From the NCBI GenBank assembly GCA_021780795.1, contig JAJXYA010000400.1, positions 1 to 6,008 on the forward strand: a DNA stretch of 6,008 bases. The letters run 5' to 3'. Positions 1 through 6,008 of the stretch are shown in pieces. The notes under the pieces were generated by a model. It was not told the DNA's origin, did not search any database, and saw only the letters and a list, made by a program, of their open reading frames with translations. Within the stretch, counting starts at the first letter, position 1, and each line of letters begins with the position of its first letter. Source of the stretch: Bacillota bacterium (lineage in GTDB: Bacteria > Bacillota_A > Clostridia > Clostridiales > Clostridiaceae). Both the position numbers and the translations under genes were made by a program.

Positions 1-753
1 ATTGTTACTATGTGAATTTCCCTTTATGTAATTTTTATCTTTTCTTGCGGGTTTTTCAATTTCTTTCCTAACATTTTCTATTAGAATAGGTTGTTTTTGT
101 TTTATTGCCCTCATTATTGAGCTGTTACTACTATTTAAGGTTTTTATATCTGTTTTCGGTTGATATGTTTTAGGAACATAGAAAAGCCATTTGATAATTT
201 TATCATTCTCTATTCTTAAAAGCCCAACTCTAAAATTAATATTTGGATGTAGATATTCAAAATACGCATGGATACCGTGAATTAATAAACCAATTTGTTG
301 ATCAGGTTGTACTATTGCATCGAAAATCTCAGAAGTATTTTTTTTACTATTTGAAACTTCTCGAGCACTTTTTTCAAAACACTCCATTTTACTATTTACA
401 ACAATTTCAATTTCCCTAAGAATCTGCGCAACATCTTCTATTTTAATTTCTCTACAGGGAGTAGCCCATTTTTTTAATAAGGGATTTATTATTTTAAACA
501 AATAAAATAATAATGTTAGTAATATAAAAAATATAAGAGAGTTGCTTATTGCATTGTCGACATATTTAAGGGGAAGAAACTTTTTAAGCTGCATTAAAAA
601 GTTAGGATTCACCAATATTGCCATCAACAATGTAGCTGGTAAAGTAAAACAAATGGGTTTAATAAAGTATTTAACAAGGAATTTCTCTTGTAAATCTAGG
701 CATTTTCTGCAGAAGTTATTAACTGCTGAATTGTTGACTTGAGGTAACTTCAT
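1..753 (-). CDS. Membrane-anchored GAF-like sensor protein, 3' end outside window (partial)
   Basis: This minus-strand reading frame starts at ATG 753-751 and stays open for 251 codons to the left edge, so the C-terminus is missing. An in-frame TAA lies nine bases before the ATG, which rules out a longer upstream start; no good ribosome binding site is seen. Residues 15-18 form a CxxC. Two hydrophobic helices span about 29-48 and 71-90, with a charged, probably helical linker at about 100-135. From about 143 onward a mixed alpha/beta region containing RVGLLRIENDKIIKWLFYVP and then SSIMRAIKQKQPILIENV has the pattern of a GAF domain: strand, strand, helix, then a short strand after 'QKQPI'. By family knowledge such proteins sense a small ligand or redox state at the inner membrane and pass the signal to a C-terminal output domain, here not visible. 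By orientation of the neighbouring ssrA remnant this is host flank, not element. The coding call is firm; the GAF assignment is moderate. Confidence 0.75.
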   Translation of the reverse strand, partial: MKLPQVNNSAVNNFCRKCLDLQEKFLVKYFIKPICFTLPATLLMAILVNPNFLMQLKKFLPLKYVDNAISNSLIFFILLTLLFYLFKIINPLLKKWATPCREIKIEDVAQILREIEIVVNSKMECFEKSAREVSNSKKNTSEIFDAIVQPDQQIGLLIHGIHAYFEYLHPNINFRVGLLRIENDKIIKWLFYVPKTYQPKTDIKTLNSSNSSIMRAIKQKQPILIENVRKEIEKPARKDKNYIKGNSHSNN

Positions 754-1136: not shown

Positions 1137-1163
1137 TGGTGGAGGCGGGGAATCGAACCCCCG
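1137..1163 (-). other. ssrA: attL: remnant of the 3' end of a tmRNA gene (T arm, acceptor, CCA)
   Basis: Read on the minus strand this segment has the T loop TTCGATT flanked by G and C runs, and it ends in CCTCCACCA. A CUCCACCA end is characteristic of tmRNA; serine tRNAs with similar stems usually end in GCCA. No D arm, anticodon or tag-peptide region follows upstream, so only the 3' tip of the gene is present. This is what integration into the 3' end of ssrA leaves at the integrase-proximal junction. Between T loop and CCA there are about two bases fewer than a normal T stem plus seven-base acceptor strand needs, which fits a non-functional, drifting copy. The integrase begins about 105 bases away. 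A second copy of this core is not found elsewhere in the window. Another RNA gene as the source is possible but less likely. Confidence 0.7.
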
Positions 1164-1188
1164 TAAATAGATACAAACATTGAATTAT

Positions 1189-1228
1189 GTATGCTATTTG
1201 CTTGCTTTTTGTGTAACGTATGCTATTT
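1189..1228 (+). repeat. Paired direct repeats GTATGCTATTT, candidate integrase arm sites
   Basis: GTATGCTATTT occurs exactly at 1189-1199 and 1218-1228, 29 bases start to start (close to three helical turns), between the ssrA remnant and the recombinase gene. Tyrosine recombinases of phages and islands commonly bind short direct repeats beside the core site through their N-terminal domain, and these repeats have the right place and spacing. The second copy overlaps a weak candidate promoter (TTGCTT 1202-1207, TATTTT 1224-1229), which would allow integrase autoregulation. The role is inferred. Confidence 0.5.
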
Positions 1229-1236
1229 TTTAGTTA

Positions 1237-1251
1237 AAGCTTGATAAGCTT
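1237..1251 (+). promoter_or_regulatory. Hairpin AAGCTT-GAT-AAGCTT before the integrase ribosome binding site
   Basis: Two self-complementary AAGCTT hexamers (1237-1242, 1246-1251) separated by GAT can form a six-pair hairpin with a three-base loop, or act as a two-part DNA operator. It ends seven bases before the only candidate ribosome binding site of the integrase (AAGG, 1258-1261). It might modulate integrase translation or bind a regulator. Confidence 0.35.
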
Positions 1252-1268
1252 AGTAAAAAGGCATAATC

Positions 1269-2525
1269 ATGATAAGCAAGACTAGAGGACACATTTTTAA
1301 GAGAGGCAATACTTATTCCCTACAATACAATATTAACGGCAAACGAATAGTCAAATCGTTAAATGTTACTAACCTTAGAGAAGCAGAAAAAAAGAGAGAC
1401 GAAATACTTACTCCACTGCTTTCTCTTAATACCAAACAAGATTTAGCTCATGTTATAGCAGAAGCTAAAAAAATATATCAGCCTAAGAAATTTCATCTAT
1501 CTTTAGTATGGAGTAATTTTGAAAGACATTTAAACAGAATAGGTTCTACCGATGATACTGCAATCAGACTTAAATACAAATGGAATAATTTTCTTGTTTG
1601 GATGCAGTTGAAATATTCCGAAATATCTAACTTAAATGAAATTACCAAAGATATAGCCAAAGAATATGCTGATGTTCTATTGGATACTGGAATATCGAAT
1701 AAGGTTTACAATGAAACTGTTAATCTATTATTTAGGATAATCGATCACTACAAAGATGAAGCTGATATTCATTATAATCCTTTTGATAAAGCAAATATTC
1801 CACGGCGCATTAAGAGTCCTATAAGCAGAAAAGAATTTACTGAAGAAGCTACCTTGAAATTATTGGAAAGTATTCCAAAAATAGGATTACCAAATTGCAG
1901 AGAGCTTGAAGTCCTGTTTCATATAGGAAGCTGGAGTGGATTAAGATTGAAGGATGCTATTTTACTTAAATGGGATGATATAGACCTAGTTAATCATAAT
2001 ATCTTTGTTACTCCATGTAAAACTAGAAACTATGGAACCAAAGTCAAAATTCCTATTCATCCAAGCCTTTTATTTTATTTGAATAGAGCCAGAGAATGGG
2101 TGATGAATGATTATGTATTGCCAAATTTAGCAGAGATGTATCTGAGAAACAGCGATACTATAGGCAAGCATATAAGAAAAATCTTAGAATATAACGGATA
2201 TGTTAATAAGAAAGAGACAAAAAGACTTTCAGCTCCGTGCCTATATGGCTTCCATTCCTTGAGGTATACGTTTGTTTCAGCATGTGCTAAGGCAGGAATA
2301 CCGGCTATGTTGGTACAAGAAATAGTCGGACACAGAAATCCTGCTATGACTAAGCATTATACTAAATTTGATGATAAATATCGACAGAAGGCTATTGGTT
2401 CGGTTCAACTATTGCCACAGTCTTCAATTTCTACCTTAAAAGATAAGATAATATTGGATGTAAATAATTTGCCAGAAGATAAACTTATTAGAGTGTCGGA
2501 GTACTTAGAATCATTGAAGCTATAA
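1269..2525 (+). CDS. int: Tyrosine-type site-specific recombinase (integrase)
   Basis: This 418-residue protein is expected to cut and rejoin DNA at the ssrA attachment site through a 3'-phosphotyrosine intermediate. The N-terminus (about 6-50: RGHIFKRGNTYSLQYNINGK) resembles the three-stranded arm-binding domain, and 75-175 the core-binding SAM-like helical domain. The catalytic domain covers about 190-385. The full active-site set is visible: Arg226 in WSGLRLKD, a likely hairpin Lys251, His329 and Arg332 in HSLRYTF, His355 in VGHRNP, and nucleophile Tyr364 in KHYTKF. About 50 residues follow the tyrosine, a longer tail than in XerC/D, ending in a helix (LPEDKLIRVSEYLESLKL). The start is preceded by AAGG seven bases upstream, a modest site. 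Length and adjacency to the attachment remnant fit an island or phage integrase rather than a chromosome-dimer resolvase. It appears intact and functional. Confidence 0.95.
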   Translation: MISKTRGHIFKRGNTYSLQYNINGKRIVKSLNVTNLREAEKKRDEILTPLLSLNTKQDLAHVIAEAKKIYQPKKFHLSLVWSNFERHLNRIGSTDDTAIRLKYKWNNFLVWMQLKYSEISNLNEITKDIAKEYADVLLDTGISNKVYNETVNLLFRIIDHYKDEADIHYNPFDKANIPRRIKSPISRKEFTEEATLKLLESIPKIGLPNCRELEVLFHIGSWSGLRLKDAILLKWDDIDLVNHNIFVTPCKTRNYGTKVKIPIHPSLLFYLNRAREWVMNDYVLPNLAEMYLRNSDTIGKHIRKILEYNGYVNKKETKRLSAPCLYGFHSLRYTFVSACAKAGIPAMLVQEIVGHRNPAMTKHYTKFDDKYRQKAIGSVQLLPQSSISTLKDKIILDVNNLPEDKLIRVSEYLESLKL

Positions 2526-2541
2526 TGCAATAAATCTTGTC

Positions 2542-2554
2542 AGTAAAGTTTACT
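2542..2554. promoter_or_regulatory. Perfect inverted repeat AGTAAA-G-TTTACT, possible operator
   Basis: A 13-base palindrome around a central G sits in the 61-base gap between the integrase stop and the next gene. There is no U tract, so it is not a terminator. It may be a protein binding site, or chance in AT-rich DNA. Confidence 0.25.
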
Positions 2555-2586
2555 AGCATTTTAACAGCATAAGATGAGATAGGGAC

Positions 2587-3183
2587 ATGGAAAAAATATA
2601 TAATTTGATTGAAGCCTTGAAGGATGATATAAAAACAAAAGCCAATGAGTTTGGCTTTCATATTTATGAGAACAAAGATGGTAACAACTCTGAAGAAATA
2701 AAAGATGAGCTAAAATTTCGAATGATCGAAACGACACCGATAAAGGCAAAATCAAAGAAATCTAAAGAAGGCAGTCTTTTTAAGAAGCGAGAGCCAAAAA
2801 AAAATAAAGAGGCTATCAGTAAACTTTTTGAGGTACTCAAAACATTAGAAAAAGCCGAAGATTATTTTCATAGTAGTGACTATGAGACAGGTATACTAAA
2901 ACTTCTTGAAGCAAAGGAAAAAATCGAGCCTCTTATGAATGAGATTAAAAAGCTAGCCAAGAAAGTAGCTTCAGGAAGATGTAAAGCAGGAAAGTCAAAG
3001 CTAAACCAAAAGCAAATACAAAATATGCGTTCTTTTATTGAAGTAAAACTAAAAGACGGAGTTGAGTATACTAGAGCAGATGACAAGAAATATGAAAAAA
3101 GTGCTGTAGCTCAAGCTATTAAAAAATTTAATGTTTGCAAAAGAACAGTGCAAGCACTTTGCCCTAAGAAATCTTTCAAATAA
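2587..3183 (+). CDS. Unrecognised lysine-rich protein with possible C-terminal helix-turn-helix
   Basis: I do not recognise this 198-residue protein. It is very basic and mostly helical in composition. Residues about 55-77 are a lysine/serine-rich low-complexity stretch (KAKSKKSKEGSLFKKREPKK). Residues about 78-127 look like a helical hairpin or coiled coil (SKLFEVLKTLEKAEDYF... LLEAKEKIEPLMNEIKKLAKKV). The last 60 residues (SKLNQKQIQNMRSFI ... SAVAQAIKKFNVCKRTVQALCPKK) have the rhythm of a helix-turn-helix, with AVAQAIKKFNVCKRTVQAL as a candidate helix-turn-recognition helix, so nucleic-acid binding is plausible. No signal peptide or membrane segment is seen. The gap to the integrase is 61 bases and a terminator follows, so it may be co-transcribed with int. 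The start has only AGGGA, too close to the ATG, and an upstream GAG, so translation may be weak or coupled. Function is unknown; an integration or replication accessory role is a guess. Confidence 0.75.
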   Translation: MEKIYNLIEALKDDIKTKANEFGFHIYENKDGNNSEEIKDELKFRMIETTPIKAKSKKSKEGSLFKKREPKKNKEAISKLFEVLKTLEKAEDYFHSSDYETGILKLLEAKEKIEPLMNEIKKLAKKVASGRCKAGKSKLNQKQIQNMRSFIEVKLKDGVEYTRADDKKYEKSAVAQAIKKFNVCKRTVQALCPKKSFK

Positions 3184-3188
3184 CCCTC

Positions 3189-3241
3189 ACCAAAACGAAA
3201 TCATGAAGGCGAGAAGCTAGACCGCTTTTTTTGGTTTTTTT
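3189..3241 (+). terminator. Rho-independent terminator after the int unit
   Basis: Six bases after the stop codon, ACCAAAA (3189-3195) pairs with TTTTGGT (3229-3235), and inside it AAGGCG (3206-3211) pairs with CGCTTT (3223-3228, one G-U pair) around an 11-base loop. A ten-base bulge lies on the 5' side. A run of six T (3236-3241) follows directly. This separates the integrase unit from the next operon. Confidence 0.65.
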
Positions 3242-3320
3242 AATGCAAAATGCTAAACATTCTAAGTAAATTGCATTTATTTTTTATTATTAAAAGTACA
3301 TTGCGCTATTGAAAAAATCA

Positions 3321-3345
3321 ATAACTATGATAAATTAGTTATACT
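3321..3345 (+). promoter_or_regulatory. Inverted repeat ATAACTA-N8-TAGTTAT over a candidate -10 box
   Basis: ATAACTA (3321-3327) and TAGTTAT (3336-3342) are perfect 7-base arms separated by eight bases. The right arm overlaps TATACT (3340-3345), a good -10 match about 125 bases before the first gene of the operon. No clear -35 is seen at the right distance; TTGAAA (3309-3314) fits only a different -10 (TAAATT, 3331-3336). A dyad over a -10 box is the usual geometry of a repressor operator, and the HTH protein encoded downstream is a natural candidate to bind it. The promoter and the regulation are inferred. Confidence 0.45.
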
Positions 3346-3353
3346 GAAGATAG

Positions 3354-3370
3354 TGCTTCTGATTGAAGCA
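3354..3370 (+). promoter_or_regulatory. Leader hairpin TGCTTC-TGATT-GAAGCA
   Basis: A six-pair stem with a five-base loop lies about ten bases downstream of the candidate -10, so it would sit at the 5' end of the leader RNA. There is no U tract. It could stabilise the transcript's 5' end or take part in leader control ahead of the two minigenes. Confidence 0.4.
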
Positions 3371-3394
3371 ACTTAATAAAAATCAAAAAACAGT

Positions 3395-3421
3395 AAGGAG
3401 GATTGAATCATGATTTTATAA
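3395..3421 (+). CDS. Leader minigene 1 (Met-Ile-Leu-stop) with consensus ribosome binding site
   Basis: AAGGAGG (3395-3401), the strongest Shine-Dalgarno in the window, lies eight bases before ATG at 3410, which is followed by ATT TTA TAA. A perfect site at perfect spacing in front of a three-codon frame is unlikely to be an accident in AT-rich DNA. It should attract ribosomes that stop almost at once. Known minigenes of this kind, such as the bar minigenes of phage lambda (Met-Ile), cause peptidyl-tRNA drop-off. Here it may instead be a regulatory leader for the operon starting at 3471. The CDS proper is 3410-3421. The role is inferred. Confidence 0.45.
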
Positions 3422-3441
3422 GGAATAAAATGTTCTTTTAA
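3420..3441 (+). CDS. Leader minigene 2 (Met-Phe-Phe-stop), coupled to minigene 1
   Basis: AAGGA (3420-3424) overlaps the stop codon of minigene 1 and sits five bases before ATG at 3430, which is followed by TTC TTT TAA (3441). A ribosome ending minigene 1 would be placed directly on this site, so reinitiation is plausible. Eighteen bases later a further AGGAAGG (3458-3464) leads to the HTH gene. Three Shine-Dalgarno/ATG units in 80 bases suggest a translated leader. Confidence 0.4.
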
Positions 3442-3470
3442 CTTAAAACTCAAAAATAGGAAGGTATGTA

Positions 3471-3764
3471 ATGTACACTAACGAAAATTTGGATGTTTTA
3501 GGAACAATGGCTCAAGGCGCTGTCAAGATCGGCTTGCTCGCAAAGGAATCTTTGACAGAAATGCTACACGTTTTAAAGACAAATCTATCAGGAATTGATA
3601 AGAAAGAAGAATATCTTACAATGACTGAGTTAGTCGAAACACTTAAAGTTTCTCGTCCTACCATCTATCGTTTGATATCGTCAGGCAAAATCAAACCAAG
3701 AAAACTCGGAAGACAGAACAGATTTCTGCTCACTGAAGTTAAAAAAATGTTGGAGGCGGCATGA
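3471..3764 (+). CDS. AlpA/excisionase-type helix-turn-helix DNA-binding protein
   Basis: This 97-residue protein ends in a compact DNA-binding domain (about 47-95) of the excisionase/MerR-like HTH_17 kind. EYLTMTELVETL begins the domain, VSRPTIYRLISSG gives the recognition helix, and KIKPRKLGRQNRFLLTEVKKML gives the basic wing and last helix. The first 40 residues are a helical extension that may mediate oligomerisation. Proteins of this family act as recombination directionality factors or as activators of island integrases (AlpA role). The start is chosen at 3471 because AGGAAGG (3458-3464) is six bases upstream. An ATG at 3466 is one base from that site and is followed at once by TAA, whose last base is the first of the true start (TAATG). 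It overlaps the next gene by ATGA. It is the first full gene after the leader and could bind the dyad at 3321-3342. It is not next to int, unlike many xis genes. Confidence 0.85.
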   Translation: MYTNENLDVLGTMAQGAVKIGLLAKESLTEMLHVLKTNLSGIDKKEEYLTMTELVETLKVSRPTIYRLISSGKIKPRKLGRQNRFLLTEVKKMLEAA

Positions 3765-4153
3765 GTAATATAAATAAAATGGACTCAGTTCTGGAAACAA
3801 CGGAAATTGTACTACCAGAATCTGAATCCAATACTAGTCATGAAGGACAAGTACTTTACTATACCTCTCCTAAGAAAGCAATCAAGCTAAAATGCAAAAA
3901 ATGTGTCGGTGGAGAAAAATGCAGAATTAAAACTTGCATGACTAAAGACTGTCCACTCTTAGAAATTAAAGATAGAAAAGGGAAGGTTTCAAAAAAGATA
4001 ATACAGAACTTTTGCTTAGAATTCTGTTTTAACAAGGAACGAAAAAAGAACTATCAATTAGTTCGTAATTGTTCTGAAGACAGTTGCCCCTTCTATCATT
4101 TACGAACTTCAGATGTAAATCGAAATCGATTTAACGCAATTTCTAGCGAATAA
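3761..4153 (+). CDS. Cys-rich protein with two related zinc-binding-like halves
   Basis: This 130-residue protein starts in an ATGA overlap with the HTH gene, with GGAGG at 3752-3756, so the two are translationally coupled. Residues 1-36 are acidic and probably disordered. The rest has two similar halves. Half 1 has KAIKLKCKKC then CMTKDCPL (Cys45, 48, 54, 59, 64). Half 2 has KKIIQNFCLEFC then CSEDSCPFYHLR (Cys85, 89, 104, 109). Each is 'K-x-I ... Cx2-3C ... C-x4-C-P-hydrophobic'. The pattern resembles small phage and island proteins with KCLDCCGG...CPxxDCPLYPYR, whose function is generally unknown; metal binding through the cysteines is a reasonable inference. Half 1 keeps the GG turn but lacks the terminal YPYR-like motif, while half 2 keeps FYHLR but has FN in place of GG. 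No membrane segment is visible. It precedes the polymerase gene and may be a replication accessory protein. Confidence 0.75.
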   Translation: MSNINKMDSVLETTEIVLPESESNTSHEGQVLYYTSPKKAIKLKCKKCVGGEKCRIKTCMTKDCPLLEIKDRKGKVSKKIIQNFCLEFCFNKERKKNYQLVRNCSEDSCPFYHLRTSDVNRNRFNAISSE

Positions 4154-4233
4154 AACAGGGATACAGGAGAGGAATGGATTACTTGCCTTCTCTTGGTGGT
4201 GGTAATTACATTTCTCTTCGTTTTCCTGCCAAA

Positions 4234-4255
4234 ATCAAACTATTTTTGATGGAGG
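4234..4255 (+). promoter_or_regulatory. Hairpin abutting the ribosome binding site of the polymerase gene
   Basis: ATCAAA (4234-4239) and TTTGAT (4245-4250) can pair around the loop CTATT, directly followed by the Shine-Dalgarno GGAGG (4251-4255) seven bases before ATG 4263. The site itself fixes the start codon. The weak hairpin could limit ribosome access or be opened by ribosomes translating the out-of-frame ATG that begins at 4174 with its own AGGAG (4165-4169). Confidence 0.4.
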
Positions 4256-4262
4256 TTGTCTT

Positions 4263-5585
4263 ATGGGGTATTCAACAAGAAATGATTCTTTTATTTTCAA
4301 TCAAAACGCATATTCAAATAATTGTGAAGTTTTGCATACCATTGAAAAGGTGTTTAGCATTATAAAAGGGGAGTTAAATTGTAATTATGAACAACCCAGG
4401 AAAAAGTTATTAAATTGTTTTTTATGTAATCTTTTATATTCATCGATTACTGGACAACGTTTAGGAATTCACCTCAATAAAAATCAATACTCCAATTTGC
4501 CGGTTCGCTATAGAGTTCCATATTATACTTACAGACTTATGGCAAATATGGTAAAGGCTCTAAACAAATACGGCCTTATATCCTTCTTGTCTCACATATA
4601 TTTCAAAGAAAATAAGGAATTGAATAGAACGACGTTATTTTATCCTACTGAGAGAATGCTTGAGATTACGAGTCTTATGGACACGAAAAAGATTACTATT
4701 TCTGAAGGTTACCCTGAAATAATTATGCTTAGAGAGAAAAAAATAGAGGGAAAAGGAGAAATTATAAACTATAAGGATACTAAAGAAACCTCAACAATGA
4801 GAAAGGATTTGGGGGAATATAACGAGTTTATCTCAGGTGCTAAAATATCTTGTAATAGAGTTAAAAGTTATAATAATACCCAATTATCTAACGAAACCAT
4901 AAATAACAATACAAACACGCAATCTCTACCATATATAAGTACAGTTAGAGTTAATGCGTTTGTAACCAGTAAGTTGCATAGAGTGTTTTCTAACTCTAGT
5001 TTTGAGCAAGGTGGGCGCTTTTATACAGGCAATTTTGGCTATCAGAATCTTTCTAAAAAAGAGAGGGAAACGATCCTGATAGATGGGGAAAGTACAGCAG
5101 AATTAGATTATTCAGGAATGCACATTTCTATGCTTTATGCTAAAAGGAATATTCAATATAATGATGATCCTTATTTAGCAGTTTCTAAACACCCAGAATT
5201 AAGGGAAATCTTAAAGAAAATACTTTTAATTTCTATTAATGCAGATAATAGAGCAAGGGCTAACAAAGCCATTATCAAAGAGTACCCTGATATAAAACAT
5301 AAACTAACTCCTTATGACTTAACATTATCATCTTTGATAGATAAATTTGAACAAGTACATAGCCCTATAGCAGATTATTTCTTTTCCGGACAAGGAGTCT
5401 TTCTTCAAAATACCGATAGCAAAATAATGAATGATATACTTATTAGTTTTACTAAACTAGGCAAGCCTGCTTTATCTGTCCATGATAGTGTTATAGTTCA
5501 AAAGAAAGATAAGTACCTGCTTAAATGGACAATGGAAGAATACTATAAAAAATATATGGATGGATTTACATGCAAAATAAAATAA
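4263..5585 (+). CDS. Polymerase-A-like DNA polymerase, probable TV-Pol (transposon/virus polymerase) family
   Basis: This 440-residue protein is likely the element's replication enzyme. Residues about 45-135 look like a winged helix (YTYRLMANMVKALNKYGLISF then NRTTLFYPTERMLEI), probably DNA binding. Residues 150-220 include LREKK, NYKDTKE and MRKDLGEYN, then an Asn-rich linker. The catalytic part follows: LHRVFSNSSFEQGGRFY (238-254), then motif A with ELDYSGMH (Asp282 metal ligand, His287), then a basic helix around INADNRARANKAI (325-337), a Q-rich segment GQGVFLQNTDSKIMNDIL (376-393), and motif C VHDSVIV (His407-Asp408). The order matches superfamily A (DYSQ ... QGTAAD ... VHDE), but the protein is far smaller, with no exonuclease domain, and has Ser after HD. 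These features fit the TV-Pol family described in bacterial mobile elements and Sputnik-like viruses, proposed to both prime and extend DNA. GGAGG and an upstream in-frame TAA at 4203 set the start. A terminator overlaps the stop. I am fairly sure of the polymerase fold, less of priming. Confidence 0.8.
   Translation: MGYSTRNDSFIFNQNAYSNNCEVLHTIEKVFSIIKGELNCNYEQPRKKLLNCFLCNLLYSSITGQRLGIHLNKNQYSNLPVRYRVPYYTYRLMANMVKALNKYGLISFLSHIYFKENKELNRTTLFYPTERMLEITSLMDTKKITISEGYPEIIMLREKKIEGKGEIINYKDTKETSTMRKDLGEYNEFISGAKISCNRVKSYNNTQLSNETINNNTNTQSLPYISTVRVNAFVTSKLHRVFSNSSFEQGGRFYTGNFGYQNLSKKERETILIDGESTAELDYSGMHISMLYAKRNIQYNDDPYLAVSKHPELREILKKILLISINADNRARANKAIIKEYPDIKHKLTPYDLTLSSLIDKFEQVHSPIADYFFSGQGVFLQNTDSKIMNDILISFTKLGKPALSVHDSVIVQKKDKYLLKWTMEEYYKKYMDGFTCKIK
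4926..4942 (+). repeat. 17-base repeat CTACCATATATAAGTAC, copy inside the polymerase gene
   Basis: This word encodes LPYIS plus part of Thr (residues 222-227) between the Asn-rich linker and the catalytic part of the polymerase. It recurs exactly at 5720-5736 downstream of the gene. Seventeen identical bases are not expected by chance within 6 kb. Confidence 0.8.
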
Positions 5586-5613
5586 AAAAGCCCAGTCTCT
5601 GAAGGTTTTTTTT
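5584..5613 (+). terminator. Rho-independent terminator overlapping the polymerase stop codon
   Basis: AAAAAAGCC (5584-5592) pairs with GGTTTTTTT (5604-5612; one G-U pair) around an 11-base loop, and the 3' arm is itself a run of eight T (5606-5613). The 5' arm begins in the TAA stop. The A/T-rich arms would also allow weak termination from the opposite strand. Confidence 0.6.
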
Positions 5614-5710
5614 AAAGGTATACTCTTGTTTTTAGCATAAGTTTATGGCAAAACTTTTTTCTCACTTTTTCTATTCATTTATTTATGACACATAAGATAC
5701 CAATATATCT

Positions 5711-5782
5711 AACACATTACTACCATATATAAGTACGTTTGGAATTAACAAGATAATAGTAAATGAGTTATAAAAGGTACTT
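5711..5782 (+). pseudogene. Decayed fragment resembling the polymerase gene
   Basis: The segment contains the exact 17-base repeat at 5720-5736. Translated in the matching frame it gives LPYISTFGINKIIVNEL, stop, KVL. This lines up without gaps against polymerase residues 222-242 (LPYISTVRVNAFVTSKLHRVF): LPYIST, N, L and V are identical and most other positions are conservative (V/I, F/I, R/K, F/L). The in-frame TAA replaces the His codon. It is therefore more likely a remnant of a second, related polymerase gene than a random repeat. No further similarity is seen beyond about 5790. A DNA binding site shared by both places is the alternative. Confidence 0.5.
5720..5736 (+). repeat. 17-base repeat CTACCATATATAAGTAC, downstream copy
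   Basis: This is an exact match to 4926-4942 in the same orientation, 794 bases apart. The surroundings are diverged at the base level but keep partial protein-level similarity (see the pseudogene entry). Recombination between the copies would remove the catalytic part of the polymerase gene and its terminator. Confidence 0.8.
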
Positions 5783-5858
5783 CCAAAAGGTTGAGAGATG
5801 CATGACGTGACGCTACCGCCCCCAATTTCTATCGTTTGTTAAAATAAAATTTTATGCA

Positions 5859-5888
5859 ATGCGAAGTAACATAAATGCGAAGCATTTA
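5859..5888. repeat. Palindrome TAAATGC-GAA-GCATTTA with adjacent ATGCGAAG repeat
   Basis: TAAATGC (5872-5878) and GCATTTA (5882-5888) are perfect 7-base arms around GAA; GAA is a very stable DNA mini-hairpin loop when closed by C-G, as here. The word ATGCGAAG occurs at 5859-5866 and again at 5875-5882 within the palindrome. There is no T tract for termination. It may be a protein binding site or a single-strand origin or recombination element. Confidence 0.4.
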
Positions 5889-5982
5889 AAGTATGACAAC
5901 TCTTAGCTATTGAATGGTTATTATGCGAGTTTATAGGCATAGACTACCAACAGTATAGAAATGTTAAGCATTGTAGGTGGTA

Positions 5983-5992
5983 GGGGGGGGGG
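5983..5992 (+). repeat. Ten-G homopolymer tract
   Basis: Ten consecutive G in an AT-rich non-coding context near the right edge. Such tracts slip during replication and often mark phase-variable promoters or genes; they are also common sequencing or assembly trouble spots. Confidence 0.7.
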
Positions 5993-6008
5993 TATCTCAA
6001 AACCTATT

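What the first reader, a model, noticed from the sequence alone, without database searches (positions are those of the whole stretch)
1137..5613. Very small integrative element built around a recombinase and a TV-Pol-like polymerase
Seen: an ssrA 3' remnant, a complete tyrosine recombinase, an AlpA/excisionase-like protein, a Cys-rich protein, an unknown basic protein and a polymerase-A-like enzyme, all on one strand. Not seen: helicase, replication initiator, capsid, packaging, conjugation or cargo genes. Known: TV-Pol enzymes were described from bacterial mobile elements and Sputnik-like viruses and proposed to act as combined primase and polymerase. Inference: this could be a self-replicating satellite or transposon-like island whose whole replication module is one protein, parallel to cellular origins proposed for virophage-type elements.
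Basis: partly seen in the sequence, partly recalled or inferred. Interest (0 to 1): 0.75.

Follow-up and report, generated by a model that had tools for sequence, protein, structure and literature searches.

The report
Genomic island with orphan phage polymerase
This is the left end of a mobile DNA island inserted next to the bacterial ssrA gene, carrying its own recombinase and an unusual, barely studied copying enzyme that turns out to sit in many similar islands; it matters because such an enzyme may let a very small element copy itself.

Summary
The polymerase has a family-A fold with catalytic residues conserved. By profile it belongs to the phage family "divPolA2" (PHROG 4756), described in 2024 with unknown role. 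TV-Pol membership stays open. "Very small" is not shown: the right end lies outside the window. New here: the polymerase family occurs in 28 of 385 alphaproteobacterial and 23 of 398 Pseudomonadota genomes sampled. In 16 of 40 neighbourhoods a direct repeat at a tRNA gene flanks it (control 9 of 1560). Fifteen bounded islands span 6.7-17.3 kb; recombinase and polymerase are their only widely shared genes, anti-phage-type cargo was recognised in 7 of 15, and no D5 helicase was found near the polymerase. The gene order int-x-alpA-x-pol matches PICMI phage satellites with the polymerase in the primase's place. Best reading: left end of an ssrA-integrated, satellite-like island whose replication or priming protein is a divPolA2 polymerase. 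Excision, replication and transfer are inferred.

The parts
1..753 (-). flanking ORF (251 aa, runs off the window), outside the element
   Evidence: no match above a curated cut-off in Pfam, none in NCBIfam
1137..1163 (-). 3'-end remnant of ssrA (tmRNA), taken as attL; the complete gene should lie at the unseen right end
   Evidence: Rfam tmRNA 24.1 bits, E 2.5e-8, below the gathering score; single copy in window
1165..1228 (.). candidate integrase-binding repeats: GTATGCTATTT at 1189 and 1218, inverted partial copy AAATAGATAC at 1165
   Evidence: (repeat D3); function inferred
1269..2525 (+). tyrosine recombinase (integrase), 418 aa
   Evidence: phrog_1 integrase 1.6e-37; relatives that carry a taxon name are Lentisphaerae/Victivallaceae/Victivallales
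2587..3183 (+). basic 198-aa protein, unknown; C-terminal part reads like a helix-turn-helix (inference)
   Evidence: no significant family
3471..3764 (+). AlpA/Xis-type HTH_17 protein, 97 aa
3761..4153 (+). Cys-rich 130-aa protein; ATGA overlap with the Xis gene
4263..5585 (+). divPolA2 / PHROG 4756 polymerase, 440 aa: GGR 250-252, D282, R314xxxK318, H407-D408-S409
5586..6008 (.). no ORF of 40 aa or more starting here; element taken to continue past the window

Best explanation
The window holds the left end (attL) of a genomic island integrated by its own tyrosine recombinase into the 3' end of ssrA. The Xis/AlpA-type protein, the Cys-rich protein and the polymerase probably form one operon. 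On induction, recombinase plus Xis excise the island as a circle; the divPolA2 polymerase then primes and/or copies it, borrowing a helicase and the rest of the replisome from the host or a helper phage; the right, unseen part probably carries cargo. Shown: genes, attL remnant, polymerase fold and conserved catalytic residues, and that the same polymerase family together with a tyrosine recombinase occurs in tRNA-integrated islands with direct-repeat borders. Inferred: excision, that the polymerase replicates or primes the island, host helicase use, cargo on the right, and transfer.
For: Family-A polymerase fold with intact catalytic residues. Profile of the family hits the published divPolA2 representative's gene at 2.2e-35 and barbavirus Barba21A at 1.0e-42. 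Family in 28 of 385 and 23 of 398 genomes (class and phylum of a Bradyrhizobium centre; four genomes with hits are in both draws). In 40 fetched neighbourhoods (of 59 distinct match places): tyrosine recombinase in 32, upstream on the same strand within 8 kb in 19; direct repeat of 16 bp or more touching a tRNA gene on one side in 16 of 40 versus 9 of 1560 mismatched left-right pairs. L064, L067, L070 and L083 show the window's own layout: remnant on the minus strand, int, pol, then the complete tRNA gene on the minus strand. Fifteen bounded islands share the polymerase (15; they were chosen by it) and the recombinase (14 of 15 in one cluster), next family 4 of 15. AlpA or HTH_17 gene within 3 kb of the polymerase in 6 of the 28 genomes examined (one of the six below the curated cut-off).
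Against: The right end and cargo of this element were not seen. In a quick tree (careful tree unfinished) the window polymerase groups with P0002 and P0003, inside a 14-row group that also holds the four phage rows (support 92, not starred), while the 39 proteobacterial island rows lie elsewhere. In phages divPolA2 is an extra polymerase beside a regular one, which argues against a replicative role there (PMC11348598). No experiment shows activity. Eight of 40 neighbourhoods gave no tyrosine recombinase and 24 of 40 no tRNA repeat by the one-sided rule. None of the window's other proteins except the integrase (best E 1.2e-5) had a relative among the ORFs of 43 stretches, so the five-gene block itself was not found again in named or sampled genomes.
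Confidence: 0.6

Rival explanations
1. The window is one end of a full temperate phage (prophage) integrated at ssrA; int, Xis and an accessory divPolA2 belong to its early region.
For: divPolA2 relatives are found in tailed phages (58 phage records by tblastn; 286 with a phage member as query); the window polymerase groups near the phage rows in a quick tree; phages of that group carry it as an accessory gene (PMC11348598).
Against: The phage records listed are 42-144 kb and no feature is annotated as integrase beside the polymerase in the four stretches I read. Bounded relatives with this polymerase are 6.7-17.3 kb and no terminase, portal or capsid family is among the 25 families printed of 70 (PHROGs) or of 55 (Pfam) for their 93 cargo ORFs (the rest of those lists was not seen), though one ORF is T7 gp14-like.
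Confidence: 0.17
2. The polymerase does not replicate the island: it is an RNA polymerase, or a nucleic-acid-synthesising defence or anti-defence factor carried as cargo.
Against: Besides the recombinase it is the one gene shared across the 15 bounded islands, though they were chosen by it, while the cargo varies; Iyer 2008 argued a replicative role for TV-Pol elements from context.
Confidence: 0.2
3. A decayed island remnant: the genes survive by chance and the element no longer moves.
For: Only one end is visible; split polymerase copies exist in relatives (L066 in two ORFs; second copy in the Paracoccus record short and with a stop).
Against: All five ORFs are open; the polymerase residues invariant in 36 rows are present; close relatives on other contigs are 75% and 69% identical over the whole polymerase and 73% and 71% over 88% of the Cys-rich protein.
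Confidence: 0.08

Closest known systems
divPolA2 polymerases of Caudoviricetes (PMC11348598; section 'Two novel phage PolAs' read, other passages seen)
   Same: Profile-level homology over about positions 27-433 of 437; active palm, no 3' exonuclease domain, N-terminal domain unlike known thumbs (the paper's statement), RNA polymerases among fold matches
   Different: There an extra gene in phages in variable neighbourhoods; here next to a recombinase in a chromosomal island
TV-Pol elements (Iyer, Abhiman, Aravind 2008, PMC2579912; abstract and parts 1-2 of 3 of the main text read)
   Same: Hairpin arginine, two catalytic aspartates, RxxxK; linked to integrases or resolvases and restriction-modification hot spots in small elements
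   Different: No firm sequence link to the presumed TV-Pol of Ma-LMM01; N-terminal part models as mixed helix and strand where the paper predicts an all-helical domain; no D5 helicase found near relatives
PICMI phage satellites of Vibrionaceae (PMC10803314; passages read)
   Same: Order int - gene - alpA - single small gene - replication gene; HTH_17 counts as AlpA in their model; small gene set
   Different: Replication gene is a polymerase, not a DUF3987/DUF5906 primase; site is ssrA, not fis; packaging and phage induction unknown
tmRNA-integrated defence islands of Pseudomonas, I55 type (PMC12595487; section 6 and passages, including part of the abstract, read)
   Same: tmRNA 3' end as site with near-identical 14-bp core (13 of 14), tyrosine integrase, AlpA
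   Different: Theirs run from under 20 to over 70 kb; other named frequent genes (RadC, YqaJ, Gp2-like); the words polymerase and primase do not occur in the main text
PolA-SSB primases (CcPol-MP, PMC10061031; parts 1-3 of 5 read)
   Same: A-family polymerase as primase or candidate primase in integrative elements; two examples sit at ssrA
   Different: Theirs appear to derive from Pol I, pair with an OB-fold protein (16 of 17) and the 17 pairs chosen all sit with a helicase; no OB-fold partner shown here (model unusable)

Membership tests
divPolA2 (PHROG 4756) | sequence homology to the published representative (AUR84708, phage MG592441) and barbavirus members | tested here: met
   profile A1 hits them at 2.2e-35 and 1.0e-42; HHalign probability 99.5 and 99.8. 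phrog_4756 at 5.4e-58; that phrog_4756 and divPolA2 are one family is my connection
divPolA2 (PHROG 4756) | active palm, no 3'-5' exonuclease domain | tested here: met
   motif residues invariant in 36 rows; 440 aa, family-A palm and fingers matched up to residue 440, many rows starting near 150; activity itself not tested
TV-Pol (Iyer 2008) | hairpin arginine, two catalytic aspartates, RxxxK | tested here: met
   GGR 250-252, D282, D408, R314xxxK318 invariant in 36 rows
TV-Pol (Iyer 2008) | sequence link to a named TV-Pol (Microcystis phage Ma-LMM01) | tested here: inconclusive
   no ORF of 195 (100 aa or more) better than E 0.22 with HMMER --max; best of 8 chosen proteins, MAP_030, HHalign E 0.006, probability 6%, 28% identity over 71 columns with motif A Asp, the +5 His, motif B Lys and the +12 Asn in register but not the motif B Arg; that MAP_030 is the paper's TV-Pol is my inference
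TV-Pol (Iyer 2008) | linked D5 helicase, or integrase/resolvase in a small element | tested here: met
   integrase in the window; element size unknown; D5_N in 3 of 28 genomes examined, none shown near the polymerase
PICMI satellite | integrase and AlpA (PF05930 or PF12728) co-located | tested here: met
   PF00589 and PF12728
PICMI satellite | DUF3987/DUF5906 primase | tested here: inconclusive
   none among the six window ORFs scanned, but the right part is unseen
PICMI satellite | integration at fis (optional in one of the paper's two searches) | tested here: not met
   tmRNA remnant next to int
PICMI satellite | induction, replication and packaging by a helper phage | not testable with these tools
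   needs culture
PolA-SSB primase (CcPol-MP) | adjacent OB-fold partner protein | tested here: inconclusive
   Cys-rich neighbour model pLDDT 38; basic protein not modelled
PolA-SSB primase (CcPol-MP) | helicase gene beside the polymerase | tested here: inconclusive
   none among the window ORFs scanned, but the right end is unseen
tmRNA-integrated genomic island | tyrosine integrase at a tmRNA 3'-end repeat with a complete gene at the other end | tested here: inconclusive
   one end seen; other end outside the window

The most novel reading that the evidence does not exclude
A broad, so far unnamed class of satellite-like islands uses a divPolA2 polymerase as its only replication gene: an A-family enzyme with RNA-polymerase-like motif C and a new N-terminal domain that starts strands de novo, doing alone what a primase-helicase does in PICMI/P4-type satellites. 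The phage divPolA2 copies would then be captured from, or aimed at, such islands.
Probability: 0.22. Interest if true: 0.8.

Novelty: new variant of a known kind. Interest (0 to 1): 0.55.

Why it matters
divPolA2 was reported in 2024 as an extra polymerase of unknown role in phages. Finding it with recombinases in many repeat-bordered islands, some of them carrying defence genes, gives it a likely job and a tractable host system, and makes testable whether one A-family enzyme can prime and replicate a small element. It would add a replication module to the known ways satellites and defence islands copy themselves.

Tried and rejected
Rejected or left open: 'Very small element' as a result (right end unseen). 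Virophage kinship (not properly tested; one search names none among 50 printed rows, many of them nameless, which is no evidence against). tRNA-His as the integration target, which I considered from the spacing of the remnant; Rfam prefers tmRNA and the printed Pseudomonas tmRNA core matches 13 of 14 bases. OB-fold partner: the structure model of the Cys-rich protein was unusable. The window's integrase, basic, Xis, Cys-rich and a 63-aa ORF were searched against the ORFs of 43 stretches at E 0.01: only the integrase found weak hits, best 1.2e-5. Window letters absent from IMG/VR as two exact patterns; no relative of the window polymerase found there with the single protein as query. PDB sequence search: three hits, best E 0.12, unrelated molecules. 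Promoter-like sites no more frequent than in shuffles (23 found, 23.0 expected), terminator-like 3 against 1.9. Careful tree not finished. Search for papers: 'TV-Pol' (8 papers hold it, some unrelated), 'divPolA2' (2), and with other terms, of which only the top 6-12 rows were listed; in what I saw no paper describes islands of this kind with this polymerase, but the library holds open-licence papers only.

Limits: 40 stretches were fetched around 40 of the 59 distinct match places; the choice favoured high scores and longer contigs. The helicase and AlpA/HTH_17 checks covered 28 of the 47 genomes with a match. Of 93 cargo ORFs of 100 aa or more, 20 were scanned singly and all 93 as a set, where only the 25 commonest families are printed. 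Two of the 15 bounded islands are weaker: L098 has no tRNA gene found, L066 has tRNA genes at both ends and is not in the 16; L075, L084 and L090 are in the 16 but were not used as bounded islands. The recombinase profile was my own. The repeat control pairs stretches of different genomes; at other lengths the counts were 15 of 40 against 8, 11 against 6 and 7 against 4 of 1560 (17, 18, 20 bases).
Full report
What is in the window. One search gives five genes on the plus strand: a 418-aa tyrosine recombinase (1269-2525), a basic 198-aa protein (2587-3183), a 97-aa AlpA/Xis-type HTH protein (3471-3764), a Cys-rich 130-aa protein (3761-4153, four-base overlap with the HTH gene) and a 440-aa protein (4263-5585). 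The recombinase matches PF00589 at 3.6e-15 and the HTH protein PF12728 at 3e-13 and the excisionase model TIGR01764 at 2.2e-10. The basic and Cys-rich proteins match no family significantly. Left of the recombinase lies the 3' end of a tmRNA gene on the minus strand: best Rfam match tmRNA, 24.1 bits, E 2.5e-8, below the curated score of 47. Only one copy is in the window, and ARAGORN finds no tRNA or tmRNA gene. In such insertions the complete gene stands at the far end (established knowledge), so the right end of the element should be past base 6008 and its size is unknown.

TV-Pol. The 2008 paper (PMC2579912) defines TV-Pol by, among others, a hairpin arginine, two aspartates and RxxxK, all present here, and describes small elements with an integrase or resolvase. 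But a member in phage Ma-LMM01, which the paper names, was not detected by profile: of 195 ORFs of 100 aa or more the best E is 0.22. HHalign on eight chosen proteins gives MAP_030 as best, E 0.006 and probability 6%; the 71 aligned columns are 28% identical and put the motif A aspartate, the +5 histidine, the motif B lysine and the +12 asparagine in register, though not the motif B arginine. That MAP_030 is the TV-Pol meant in the paper is my inference. I leave TV-Pol membership open: alike in layout and perhaps a distant relative, not shown to be a member.

Sugar choice. T7 RNA polymerase has HDS at motif C and T7 DNA polymerase HDE; the family has HDS in 34 of 36 rows. The tyrosine at motif B +12 of both T7 enzymes is Asn in 33 of 36 rows, and motif A +5, Gly in T7 RNA polymerase, is His in 33 of 36 (correspondence by motif spacing, since the profile alignments to the T7 proteins were not significant; the role of these positions is recalled). 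DNA versus RNA synthesis therefore cannot be called from sequence.

Relatives in genomes. With the profile, 28 of 385 genomes of the class and 23 of 398 of the phylum of a Bradyrhizobium centre have a match at 1e-10; four genomes with hits are in both draws. I took 40 neighbourhoods of up to 20 kb around 40 of the 59 distinct match places. A tyrosine recombinase was found in 32 of 40, upstream on the same strand within 3 kb in 13 and within 8 kb in 19 (my own recombinase profile). A direct repeat of at least 16 bases that touches a tRNA gene on exactly one side was found in 16 of 40, against 9 of 1560 mismatched left-right pairs. L064 (55-base repeat, tRNA-Val), L067 (51, tRNA-Gly), L070 (17, tRNA-Arg) and L083 (72, tRNA-Gln) show the window's own layout: remnant, int, pol, complete tRNA gene.

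Fifteen bounded islands measure 6,693 to 17,297 bases. Clustering their proteins, the polymerase is in 15 (by choice of loci), the recombinase cluster in 14, and the next shared family in 4 (probably the serine resolvases that Pfam finds in 4 of 93 cargo ORFs). Of 20 cargo proteins scanned singly, 10, from 7 of the 15 islands, match anti-phage models at 1e-9 or better: type I, II, IIG and III restriction-modification proteins, OLD/AriA-like ATPases, an LmuB-like protein and a candidate PDC-S60; the ATPase matches are generic. No terminase, portal or capsid family is among the 25 families printed (of 70 and of 55) for all 93 cargo ORFs, but one ORF is T7 gp14-like. D5_N helicase occurs in 3 of the 28 genomes examined; one lies about 134 kb away on the same contig, the others on other contigs whose distance is unknown. 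An AlpA or HTH_17 gene lies within 3 kb of the polymerase in 6 of these 28 genomes (G016, G023, G105, G683, G223, G118; the G683 match is below the curated cut-off).

Reading. The gene order int, gene, alpA, single gene, replication gene is that of PICMI satellites (PMC10803314, passages), where the last gene is a DUF3987/DUF5906 primase and its deletion lowers copy number. Here a polymerase stands in its place. Pseudomonas islands at the tmRNA gene (PMC12595487, section 6 and passages) share site, tyrosine integrase and AlpA, most carry defence systems, and one, I55, is transduced by a jumbo phage. I therefore hold that the window is the left end of an ssrA-integrated, satellite-like island whose replication or priming gene is a divPolA2 polymerase. 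Against this: the right end is unseen, the five-gene block itself was not found in the sampled stretches, the quick tree places the window polymerase in a group with the phage rows and some metagenome rows rather than with the proteobacterial island rows, and no activity is known.

Host. The only relatives of the recombinase whose source name gives a taxon are from Lentisphaerae, Victivallaceae and Victivallales, so a Lentisphaerota host is likely but not shown; no genome of the window is held.

Noticed in passing
L003 10090-13173 and 5878-7339 (Paracoccus versutus pBEN): An integrase ORF (404 aa) ends 9 bases before a divPolA2-type ORF (619 aa), and an integrase fragment plus a polymerase fragment lie about 3-4 kb upstream: a two-gene int-pol unit, apparently duplicated.
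   Followed up: partly
HQ641351 52721-54208 (L107) and other ICP1 phages: Vibrio cholerae phage ICP1 carries a divPolA2 relative annotated hypothetical (profile 2.9e-41); some phage records show two or three places.
   Followed up: partly
G143, G009, G242, G323 (L032-L035): Four genomes of about 1.4 Mb have 455-aa open frames matching only the N-terminal half of the profile (E 5e-19 to 4e-17), as if that domain also occurs with another C-terminal part.
   Followed up: no
window 1165-1228: Two direct copies of GTATGCTATTT and an inverted partial copy between the ssrA remnant and int: candidate recombinase arm sites.
   Followed up: no
window 5983-5992: A run of ten G close to the window's end, a possible assembly weak point.
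   Followed up: no
window 1-753, minus strand: Flanking protein with hydrophobic stretches near its N-terminus and no family match above a cut-off.
   Followed up: no
one of 15 bounded islands (93 ORFs): A T7 gp14-like internal virion protein family (PF24072, phrog_308) is matched by one cargo ORF, the only virion-type family among those printed.
   Followed up: no
AB231700 22746-24266 (L112, MAP_030): Hypothetical protein next to a transposase in phage Ma-LMM01 aligns weakly to the family with the unusual motif A +5 His and motif B +12 Asn in register: a possible bridge between TV-Pol and divPolA2.
   Followed up: partly
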